In this document: positions 5,917-7,022 of the stretch, piece after piece | Numbering within the stretch: position 1 is the stretch's first letter | Layout of the letters: every line of letters starts with the position of its first letter | DNA from: Actinomycetes bacterium | Lineage (GTDB): Bacteria > Actinomycetota > Actinomycetes > Actinomycetales > Cellulomonadaceae | Direction: 5' to 3' | Assembly: GCA_021793115.1 (NCBI GenBank) | Contig: JAJYTJ010000037.1 | Span: 1-27,222, forward strand | Length of the DNA stretch: 27,222 bases | Translations under genes and position numbers: made by a program | The notes under the pieces: generated by a model | What the model saw: the letters and a program-made list of their open reading frames with translations, nothing else | Told to the model about the DNA's origin: nothing | Databases searched by the model: none

Positions 5917-5990
5917 GGGGCAGTAGCTCAGCCGGTCAGAGCAGCGGACTCATAATCCGTCGGTCGCGGGTTCAAGCCCCGCCTGCCCCA
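5917..5990 (+). tRNA. tRNA with CAT anticodon (elongator tRNA-Met or lysidine-type tRNA-Ile2)
   Basis: This is a 74-base cloverleaf with acceptor GGGGCAG/CTGCCCC and discriminator A. The D arm is GCTC..GAGC, the anticodon stem-loop GCGGA-CTCATAA-TCCGT, and the T arm GCGGG/TTCAAGC/CCCGC. CCA is not encoded. The first base pair is G-C, so it is not the initiator. A CAT anticodon cannot separate elongator Met from the TilS-modified Ile tRNA by eye. Confidence 0.93.
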
Positions 5991-6100
5991 CACGCCGCCT
6001 CCCGGGTCCACATCACCCGCGCGCCTCGGACGAGGGCCCTGCCCGGGGCCGCGGAACGCGATTTCACCCGCCCGCCGAATCAGACATTCGCGGGCACACG

Positions 6101-6130
6101 TTGTCCCATGACGCCCAAATGGGGCATAGT
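6101..6130 (+). promoter_or_regulatory. Predicted promoter of the bldC riboswitch transcript
   Basis: TTGTCC at 6101-6106 and CATAGT at 6125-6130 are separated by 18 bases, a good sigma-70-type arrangement. An imperfect inverted repeat, GCCC-AAAT-GGGGC (about 6113-6125), fills the spacer and could be an operator. Transcription would begin near 6137, at the riboswitch edge. Confidence 0.5.
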
Positions 6131-6138
6131 GCCTTTGT

Positions 6139-6215
6139 CAGCGACAACGGCAAACCCGACCGCAAGGCGGGGACGCAAAGCCACGGGACCCCTTGGGCCA
6201 GCCGAGCTACCGAAC
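6139..6215 (+). promoter_or_regulatory. GEMM-I (cyclic di-GMP class I) riboswitch upstream of bldC
   Basis: The conserved landmarks of the GEMM aptamer are present in order: GGCAAACC, a helix capped by a GNRA tetraloop (GCAA at 6162-6165), GGACGCAAAGCC, then ACGGG with a second hairpin (GGACCCC/GGGCC), and the closing AGCCGAGCTACCG. It ends a few bases before the AGGAG of bldC, with no terminator stem between, so control of translation initiation is the likeliest mode. The ligand is inferred from family knowledge to be c-di-GMP. The related GEMM-Ib subclass senses cyclic AMP-GMP, and I cannot exclude it by eye, although the base I align with the key guanine of Vc2 is G here. Confidence 0.88.
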
Positions 6216-6218
6216 GAC

Positions 6219-6223
6219 AGGAG
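6219..6223 (+). promoter_or_regulatory. Shine-Dalgarno site of bldC
   Basis: AGGAG lies seven bases before the ATG at 6231 and decides between it and the out-of-frame ATG at 6226. It sits within GACAGG, which can pair with TTTGTC upstream of the aptamer, suggesting a possible masking mechanism. Confidence 0.65.
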
Positions 6224-6230
6224 TCATGAG

Positions 6231-6446
6231 ATGGCACCGACCCCCCACACCACGCTCTCGCAGGGTTCTCTGCTCACGCCAGGCGAGGTCGCGGTCCTGT
6301 TCCGGGTCGACCCGAAGACGGTCACGCGCTGGGCGCAGGCCGGCAAGCTCTCGACCGTGCGCACGCTCGGCGGCCACCGCCGGTTCCACGAGGACGAGGT
6401 GTGCCAGCTGCTGGGAGAGGTCCCGCAGCAGCGCGCGGGCGACTGA
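6231..6446 (+). CDS. bldC: BldC-family MerR-like DNA-binding regulator
   Basis: This 71-residue protein is a single winged helix-turn-helix of the BldC family, DNA-binding developmental and metabolic regulators of actinobacteria. The core LLTPGEVAVLFRVDPKTVTR (residues 14-33), followed by WAQAGKLSTVRTLGGHRRFH, matches my memory of Streptomyces BldC closely, and the family length is about 68-70 residues. It lacks any MerR effector domain, so ligand control has to come from elsewhere; here a GEMM riboswitch lies immediately upstream. In Streptomyces c-di-GMP acts through BldD and RsiG. Riboswitch control of bldC would be a separate route to development or motility genes in this organism. A 12-bp terminator hairpin follows, so the unit is monocistronic. 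The start is fixed by AGGAG seven bases upstream. Confidence 0.92.
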   Translation: MAPTPHTTLSQGSLLTPGEVAVLFRVDPKTVTRWAQAGKLSTVRTLGGHRRFHEDEVCQLLGEVPQQRAGD

Positions 6447-6464
6447 GCGCACCAGCACCGCAGC

Positions 6465-6493
6465 GACGCCGGCGGGTTCGTCCCGCCGGCGTC
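6465..6493 (+). terminator. Intrinsic terminator hairpin of bldC
   Basis: GACGCCGGCGGG and CCCGCCGGCGTC form a perfect 12-bp stem around a five-base TTCGT loop, 18 bases after the bldC stop. No T tract follows, as is common in actinobacteria. Confidence 0.75.
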
Positions 6494-6530
6494 CCCATGT
6501 CCGGGACTCTCGCCATGGGAGGATCAATGC

Positions 6531-7022
6531 ATGGCCATGCGTGAGATCCGCGTCGTCGGCGACCCCGTGCTGCGCACGCCGTGCGACCCCGTCACCACCG
6601 TCGACGACCGCGTGCGCGGGCTCGTCGCCGACCTGCTCGAGACGGTCGACGAGGACGGCCGCGCGGGCCTGGCCGCCAATCAGATCGGTGTCAGCCTGCG
6701 CGCCTTCTCGTGGAACATCGACGACGAGATCGGGTACGTCCTCAACCCGGTGATCGTCGAGCTCTCCGAGGAGGAGTACCAGGACGACGACGAGGGCTGC
6801 CTGTCGGTCCCGGGCCTGTGGTTCCCCACCCGCCGTTCCTGGTACGCCCGCGTGGTGGGCGAGGACCTCGAGGGCAAGGAGGTCGTCGTCGAGGGGACCG
6901 GCCTCATGGCGCGCTGCCTGCAGCACGAGGTGGACCACCTCGACGGCCACCTGTACGTTGACCGCCTCGAGCGCTCCGTGCGCAAGAAGGCGATGAAGGC
7001 GATCCGCGAGCAGCTCGGCTGA
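6531..7022 (+). CDS. def: Peptide deformylase
   Basis: The enzyme removes the formyl group from the N-terminal methionine of nascent proteins in the cytoplasm, using a divalent metal, usually Fe2+. All three family motifs are present in the 163 residues: GLAANQIG (46-53), EGCLS (88-92, with metal ligand Cys90), and QHEVDH (131-136, ligands His132 and His136, catalytic Glu133). An acidic [10 protein letters not shown] stretch precedes motif 2. The first ATG, at 6531, has GGAGG eight bases upstream; a second in-frame ATG at 6537 is possible. The gene is separated from bldC by that gene's terminator. This is likely one of several def copies, as actinobacteria often have more than one. Confidence 0.95.

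What the first reader, a model, noticed from the sequence alone, without database searches (positions are those of the whole stretch)
6101..6446. GEMM-I riboswitch directly controlling a bldC gene
The aptamer landmarks GGCAAACC, a GNRA-capped helix, GGACGCAAAGCC and the closing AGCCGAGCTACCG lie between a plausible promoter and the ribosome site of bldC. BldC has no ligand domain. In Streptomyces, c-di-GMP reaches development through BldD and RsiG. A cyclic-dinucleotide riboswitch on bldC would give that second messenger a separate, RNA-level route to the same circuit. I do not recall this arrangement being described.
Basis: partly seen in the sequence, partly recalled or inferred. Interest (0 to 1): 0.75.

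Follow-up and report, generated by a model that had tools for sequence, protein, structure and literature searches.

The report
c-di-GMP riboswitch before BldC paralogue
In Cellulomonas and its close relatives an RNA switch of the kind that senses the messenger c-di-GMP sits directly in front of an extra copy of the developmental regulator gene bldC, whereas the original bldC copies that were examined lack it.

Summary
Rfam's c-di-GMP-I (GEMM-I) model matches 6139-6214 (54.1 bits, cut-off 35), 16 nt before a BldC-family ORF at 6231-6446. Of 81 Cellulomonas genomes, 77 carry this BldC type, and all 77 have the element before it.

Correction: this is not the canonical bldC. 74 of the 81 genomes have two or more BldC matches; the other type lies beside purF/purM (22 of 23 loci), as in Streptomyces, and has no element (0 of 18 loci). 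In the 37 other element-bearing genomes of the family, 50 of 82 BldC genes have the element, 11 genomes have two to four such units, and 31 keep an element-free BldC. In 57 of 105 element-free relatives no BldC scores above 79.3 bits.

A P1 helix, compensated in one clade, joins the predicted 5' end of the mRNA to the bases next to the Shine-Dalgarno. No terminator was found, so control of translation is likely. A competing hairpin that hides the Shine-Dalgarno slightly favours an ON switch; folding does not settle the sign. G20 and A47 point to c-di-GMP. Ten full-text searches listed no paper describing this. Binding and regulation are untested.

The parts
6101..6130 (+). Predicted promoter: -35 TTGTCC (6101-6106), 18-nt spacer, -10 CATAGT (6125-6130)
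   Evidence: 73 of 82 leaders have TTG at 16-19 nt before a CATAGT-like -10, then 6-9 nt to the GUC/GUUG that starts P1. mRNA start about 6136-6138 (inference).
6136..6139 (+). P1 helix, 5' strand (UGUC), at the predicted 5' end of the mRNA
   Evidence: pairs with 6216-6219; changed together to GUUG:CGAC in one clade (12 of 71 rows)
6139..6214 (+). c-di-GMP-I (GEMM-I) aptamer
   Evidence: RF01051, 54.1 bits, gathering 35, E 3.8e-8
6149..6149 (+). Ligand-selecting residue equivalent to Vc2 G20 (G here)
   Evidence: G in 70 of 71 leaders, A in one (L222); role of the position from passages of PMC9262584 and PMC6274999
6155..6171 (+). P2 with GCAA tetraloop; an extra A at 6159 found only in the window
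   Evidence: all 71 loops are GNRA; only the window has a letter in that column
6177..6177 (+). Residue equivalent to Vc2 A47 (A here)
   Evidence: A in 71 of 71; numbering recalled
6207..6211 (+). CU(A)CC at the 3' end of the aptamer core, able to pair with the Shine-Dalgarno GGAG in a competing fold
   Evidence: competing fold within 4 kcal/mol of the aptamer fold in 57 of 70 leaders (50 of 70 with 30 nt of coding sequence)
6216..6219 (+). P1 helix, 3' strand (GACA), touching the Shine-Dalgarno
6219..6223 (+). Shine-Dalgarno AGGAG
   Evidence: GGAG 2-9 nt after GAAC in 70 of 71 leaders
6231..6446 (+). BldC-family gene (71 aa), the element-linked paralogue, here called BldC-A
6465..6493 (+). 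12-bp perfect hairpin after the stop codon; possible end of the transcript, no T run
   Evidence: read; the scan found no standard terminator

Best explanation
A c-di-GMP-I riboswitch forms nearly the whole predicted 5' UTR of a BldC paralogue (BldC-A) and sets its translation. Shown by sequence: the aptamer; its covarying helices, P1 included; a near-constant 42-53 nt from the GACGCAAAGC block to the start codon; linkage to one BldC type across the family; absence from the syntenic bldC loci examined. Inferred: transcription starts at the 5' strand of P1. Without ligand the Shine-Dalgarno GGAG can pair with CU(A)CC at the 3' end of the aptamer; c-di-GMP binding uses that stretch and closes P1, which leaves the Shine-Dalgarno free, so high c-di-GMP would raise BldC-A (ON; about 0.5, against about 0.35 for OFF). 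BldC-A keeps the DNA-contact residues of BldC and should bind BldC-type direct repeats, alone or mixed with canonical BldC.
For: Rfam match. 77 of 77 BldC-A leaders in 81 Cellulomonas genomes carry it. Own covariance model: 15 of 80 BldC loci match at 84 bits or more, each ending 4-61 nt before the aligned part of BldC; next best 20.3 bits. No match in 18 canonical and 8 single-BldC loci (best chance hit there 12.9 bits). 50 of 82 BldC genes in 37 further genomes. Whole structure: 98.3% of cells paired, 89 cells changed on both sides against 15.6 in shuffles, 0 of 500. P1 alone: covariation score 0.541 against 0.180, 0 of 500. GGDEF: 5-49 matches in 14 Cellulomonas genomes. BldC contact motifs in all 229 BldC locus hits, 134 element-linked and 95 not, duplicates included.
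Against: No binding or expression data. The P1 compensation is mostly one clade, perhaps one event; two of five P1 measures do not beat shuffles. Folding gives no uniform sign: the Shine-Dalgarno is more open in the aptamer fold in 26, less in 18, about equal in 24 of 68 leaders scored (71 given). Requiring P1 costs about 2 kcal/mol without ligand. With 30 nt of coding sequence the aptamer fold is on average 1.4 kcal/mol worse than the competing fold. The competing hairpin has no independent control. The window leader does not fold better than shuffles (z -0.22). The window's P2 has an extra A seen in no other of 71 leaders. G016 has 6 GGDEF matches but neither element nor BldC-A.
Confidence: 0.75

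Rival explanations
1. OFF switch: c-di-GMP closes P1, whose 3' strand touches or lies a few nt from the Shine-Dalgarno, and the compact aptamer blocks the ribosome.
For: P1 abuts the Shine-Dalgarno and is compensated. Vc2 is described as a translational OFF switch whose key is P1 stability (PMC9262584, passages), although PMC12564702 calls Vc2 a 'gene-on switch' (passages).
Against: In many leaders one to three nucleotides separate P1 and Shine-Dalgarno, so the Shine-Dalgarno itself is not in the helix; the competing fold pairs it only when the aptamer is open.
Confidence: 0.3
2. The aptamer acts on mRNA stability: ligand binding hides the 5' end in P1 and protects the transcript.
For: The predicted transcription start lies at the 5' strand of P1 in 73 of 82 leaders.
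Against: Only predicted 5' ends, no decay data; the tight spacing to the Shine-Dalgarno is simpler to explain by translation.
Confidence: 0.1
3. The element senses cyclic AMP-GMP (GEMM-Ib) or is promiscuous.
For: GEMM-I with G20 changed to A binds cGAMP (PMC6274999, passages); one leader, L222, has A there. The position is described as a selectivity factor, not a hard filter (PMC9262584, passages).
Against: 70 of 71 leaders, the window included, have G; GGDEF domains are present in all 14 Cellulomonas genomes searched.
Confidence: 0.05
4. A fossil or chance match without function.
For: The window's element scores lower than that of its nearest relative (54.1 bits, against 64.8 in G015).
Against: E 3.8e-8, covariation, ligand-site residues kept and family-wide linkage.
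Confidence: 0.02

Closest known systems
c-di-GMP-I (GEMM-I) riboswitches, RF01051, e.g. Vibrio cholerae Vc1/Vc2 and Clostridioides difficile Cd1
   Same: Aptamer core, G20, A47, P2 with GNRA loop, P3, closing P1; Vc2 also controls translation (PMC9262584, passages).
   Different: Target is a BldC paralogue. P3 is short: Rfam consensus positions around CUAA...UAUG are gaps in the window, and loops are GCAA or GCGA in 68 of 71; perhaps the second of two GEMM types told apart by loop and receptor (PMC12564702, passages). P1 runs from the predicted 5' end to the Shine-Dalgarno.
BldD-(c-di-GMP) in Streptomyces (RsiG/WhiG recalled)
   Same: c-di-GMP acting on a developmental regulator network (PMC6428758 and PMC5859096, passages).
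   Different: There the messenger binds protein; here an mRNA of a BldC-family regulator. BldD was not searched for in these genomes.
Canonical BldC of Streptomyces (6ama, 6amk)
   Same: BldC-A matches at about 85 bits and keeps the motifs of Lys26, Arg30 and His46 (residues from PMC5859096, passages).
   Different: BldC-A lies elsewhere: none of the 15 element-linked loci holds purF/purM, 53 of the other 65 do.
c-di-GMP-II riboswitch (RF01786)
   Same: Same ligand.
   Different: No match in 6 genomes searched, but no control genome rang either, so absence is not shown.

Membership tests
c-di-GMP-I riboswitch (RF01051) | Score above the curated cut-off over the full model | tested here: met
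   54.1 bits against 35, model 1-87
c-di-GMP-I riboswitch (RF01051) | Three-stem junction P1, P2, P3 with covariation | tested here: met
   8 of 22 pairs have changes on both sides; P1, mainly one clade, two of five measures no better than shuffles
c-di-GMP-I riboswitch (RF01051) | Ligand residues G20 and A47 and the CC holding C92 | tested here: met
   70 of 71, 71 of 71, and 70 and 71 of 71 for the two C; numbering partly recalled
c-di-GMP-I riboswitch (RF01051) | GNRA tetraloop on P2 with a receptor in P3 | tested here: inconclusive
   Loop GNRA in 71 of 71; consensus positions that hold the usual receptor are gaps; another receptor was not tested
c-di-GMP-I riboswitch (RF01051) | Binds c-di-GMP and changes expression | not testable with these tools
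   Needs in-line probing and reporters
BldC family (NF033787) | Score above the curated cut-off | tested here: met
   98.9 bits against 77
BldC family (NF033787) | DNA-contact residues Lys26, Arg30, His46 | tested here: met
   Motifs DPK..TR and GGH in 134 of 134 element-linked locus hits, duplicates included
bldC orthologue of Streptomyces | Synteny with purM/purF | tested here: not met
   purF/purM region of L240 matches 22 of 23 BldC-B loci and none of the BldC-A loci; the fair test is the window (27 kb) and the 10-kb loci, since the loci L165-L236 are only about 1.7-3.3 kb; 0 of 15 element-linked loci. Window neighbours: a tRNA gene and peptide deformylase
3',3'-cGAMP (GEMM-Ib) riboswitch | A at position 20 | tested here: not met
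   G in the window

The most novel reading that the evidence does not exclude
Riboswitch plus bldC is a regulatory unit that has multiplied in this family: an extra BldC acquired a c-di-GMP riboswitch, and units then arose up to four times per genome while one element-free BldC was usually kept. Since BldC binds DNA as head-to-tail oligomers, c-di-GMP would tune the make-up or length of mixed BldC filaments, giving the messenger an RNA-level input into BldC control of whole regulons.
Probability: 0.3. Interest if true: 0.78.

Novelty: new member of a known kind. Interest (0 to 1): 0.6.

Why it matters
c-di-GMP is known to steer Streptomyces development by binding proteins. Here the same messenger would act through RNA on a BldC-family regulator in relatives that, as far as I recall, do not sporulate, and the unit has multiplied. 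It offers a ready test of how a second messenger gained a new output through gene duplication plus a riboswitch, and of what BldC does outside Streptomyces.

Tried and rejected
First family scans used the wrong frame (6232 instead of 6231) and found nothing; repeated in the right frame. No whole genome is held for the window, so c-di-GMP enzymes and the canonical bldC of this very organism could not be checked.

A direction of switching from Shine-Dalgarno openness alone was rejected: no uniform sign. The competing hairpin is slightly favoured but has no independent control, since CUACC belongs to the conserved aptamer and GGAG to a common Shine-Dalgarno. RNAalifold's pairs 9-20 and 10-19 were set aside because they clash with G21-C46 and C22-G45 of Rfam's structure. 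A local 5' hairpin (UGUC...GACA) seen in single folds was considered as a competitor of P1; by eye it is weakened in leaders with GCGAA, GCGAG or GCGAT; no count was made.

The tree of BldC cores (122 rows, 58 columns, quick method, careful search unfinished) shows element-linked sequences clustered (3 changes against 39 in shuffles) but leaves 75 of 118 inner branches open; one group of nine element-linked rows (Actinotalea type) falls, weakly, with the element-free rows. L271 and L279 were labelled 'none' by my pattern although one search shows the element 53 and 76 nt upstream; corrected, tree not rebuilt.

c-di-GMP-II search: nothing rang, controls included. Literature: ten full-text searches, judged by their listings, show no paper that links a c-di-GMP riboswitch with bldC. 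Opened by passages only: PMC11626248, PMC11678152, PMC9262584, PMC6274999, PMC4255298 (no mention of a riboswitch), PMC5859096, PMC6428758 (abstract 47, passages 66), PMC12096830, PMC12564702, PMC2374992, PMC12691653. The 2007 GEMM paper is not held, so its gene lists were not seen.

Full report
1. What is in the window. The Rfam c-di-GMP-I model RF01051 matches 6139-6214 on the + strand over its full length (54.1 bits, gathering score 35, E 3.8e-8). Upstream is TTGTCC - 18 nt - CATAGT (6101-6130); downstream are AGGAG (6219-6223) and a 71-aa ORF at 6231-6446. The ORF matches NCBIfam HTH_BldC (98.9 bits, cut-off 77), Pfam HTH_17 and MerR and the solved BldC chains 6ama and 6amk. It lies between a tRNA gene (5917-5990) and a peptide deformylase gene (6531-7022).

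2. Conservation. One scan of species genomes with this BldC kept the best 80 loci, the top 12 from Cellulomonas. All 81 genomes returned as the genus of C. chitinilytica have a BldC. In 77 the best match scores 93-136 bits (window type, BldC-A); in G016, G017, G083 and G098 the only match scores 84-88 bits. I held DNA for all 77 (L165-L194, L195-L236, L122-L125 and L135). A pattern found the element upstream in 75; the covariance model found the other two, L222 and L225. So 77 of 77. The distance from the GACGCAAAGC block to the start codon is 42-53 nt in 82 leaders parsed of 83 tried (L169 was not parsed but matches). The 82 include five from outside that genus list (L012, L014, L016, L018, L126).

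3. Two BldC types. 74 of the 81 genomes show two or more BldC matches. Eighteen loci of the second type (BldC-B, L237-L254, chosen from those listed) carry no element (0 of 18). Neighbours in L240 include PurF and PurM (Pfam GATase_6/Pribosyltran and AIRS); they match 22 of 23 BldC-B loci and Streptomyces- and Kineosporia-type bldC loci, and no BldC-A locus. Most BldC-A loci are too short for that test; the fair ones are the window and the 10-kb loci, where 0 of 15 element-linked but 53 of the other 65 loci hold purF or purM. By synteny BldC-B is the orthologue of Streptomyces bldC, and the window gene is a paralogue.

4. Beyond the genus. RF01051 is over its cut-off in 116 of 221 genomes of the family (stricter filters that lose some weak matches). 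All 37 element-bearing genomes outside the 81 were searched with both queries. Of 82 BldC matches, 50 have the element on the same strand, 23-76 nt before the aligned part of BldC; 36 of 37 genomes have at least one such gene and 11 have two to four (G027 has four). In 31 genomes an element-free BldC remains; six (G023, G025, G031, G033, G034, G036) show none, which may be loss or incomplete assemblies. 50 of their 134 elements are BldC-linked. Of the 105 genomes without a match I searched 57: 54 have a BldC, 50 of these just one, none above 79.3 bits; the eight whose DNA came with the answer all hold purM and have no element. Score alone cannot tell the two types apart outside Cellulomonas, where element-linked BldCs score 53-103 bits. 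In a sample of 394 genomes of the class, 43 have the element; of the 60 matches listed I fetched and tested 29 loci (L136-L164), and none holds a BldC.

5. c-di-GMP enzymes. GGDEF matches: 5 to 49 in 14 genomes titled Cellulomonas, 0 or 1 in six element-free relatives. G016 has six but neither the element nor BldC-A, so the link is not strict.

6. Structure. Alignment A1 holds 71 distinct leaders of the 82. With the named structure 98.3% of 1561 cells pair; 89 cells are changed on both sides against 15.6 in shuffles (0 of 500). RNAalifold by itself found a P1 helix that is not in Rfam's consensus line: UGUC at 6136-6139 with GACA at 6216-6219. In 12 leaders of one clade it reads GUUG:CGAC. Alone it scores 0.541 against 0.180 in shuffles (0 of 500), above every slid version (highest 0.230), but 'pairs with a change on both sides' and 'further pair types' do not beat shuffles (405 and 410 of 500), and the changes are probably one event. 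In 73 of 82 leaders a -35/-10 pair ends 6-9 nt before P1, so the mRNA probably begins with P1.

7. Ligand. The position equivalent to G20 is G in 70 of 71 leaders and A in L222; A47 is A in 71 of 71; the two C around C92 are kept in 70 and 71 of 71. Passages of PMC9262584 and PMC6274999 treat position 20 as a selector between cyclic dinucleotides and P1 as crucial in Vc2. c-di-GMP is therefore the likely ligand.

8. Mechanism. No terminator-like site was found in 5990-6560, and only 16 nt separate the Rfam match from the start codon. Control of translation is the simplest reading. Leader folding gives no uniform sign (more open 26, less 18, same 24 of 68). A hairpin between CU(A)CC at the end of the aptamer and GGAG of the Shine-Dalgarno lies within 4 kcal/mol of the aptamer fold in 57 of 70 leaders (aptamer minus hairpin -0.4, sd 2.6; mean probability 0.33); with 30 nt of coding sequence in 50 of 70 (+1.4, sd 3.1; 0.32). 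The two exclude each other, so binding would free the Shine-Dalgarno: an ON switch, about 0.5. P1 touching the Shine-Dalgarno could instead make an OFF switch, about 0.35; the rest is mRNA stability or other.

9. The protein. All 229 BldC locus hits (134 element-linked, 95 not; 122 distinct sequence and label pairs) keep the motifs holding Lys26, Arg30 and His46 (residues from PMC5859096, passages). BldC binds direct repeats as head-to-tail oligomers and in Streptomyces acts as a brake on development (PMC5859096, PMC6428758, passages). That BldC-A binds the same sites or mixes with BldC is inference.

10. Novelty. Ten full-text searches of the held library list no paper with this link. The library is open-licence only and the first GEMM paper is not in it. 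The aptamer is a member of a known class and the protein of a known family; the pairing, its restriction to a paralogue in the loci examined, and its multiplication appear undescribed.

Noticed in passing
L081-L083, L086-L091, L093, L098, L112, L113, L116, L121, L127, L129, L131, L133, L134: In these 20 fetched loci the GEMM-I element precedes a 43-58 aa ORF (mostly MDQ.G...VP.Q). One of them has no Pfam match and 28 homologues in the protein database, called 'hypothetical protein' where a source names them. A perhaps related small ORF (MGDF...PPQ...RWAA) follows the element in L111, L114, L120 and L128.
   Followed up: partly
L222 894-994: This BldC-linked element has A at the position of G20, a mark of cyclic AMP-GMP (GEMM-Ib) riboswitches; a natural candidate for a changed ligand.
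   Followed up: partly
G033 contig C31 119577-120301; G027: G033 has two element-BldC units in tandem within about 730 bases; G027 has four element-linked BldC genes and nine elements in all.
   Followed up: no
window 6159: An extra A bulges from P2; none of the other 70 leaders has it. It may be strain variation or a sequencing error.
   Followed up: no
L094, L100, L115, L138, L139, L141, L143, L144: Other actinobacterial GEMM-I elements precede ORFs that look like secreted proteins, and in L138 a response regulator (judged by eye).
   Followed up: no
window 6465-6493: A 12-bp perfect hairpin follows bldC without a T run; possibly a terminator of a GC-rich type.
   Followed up: no
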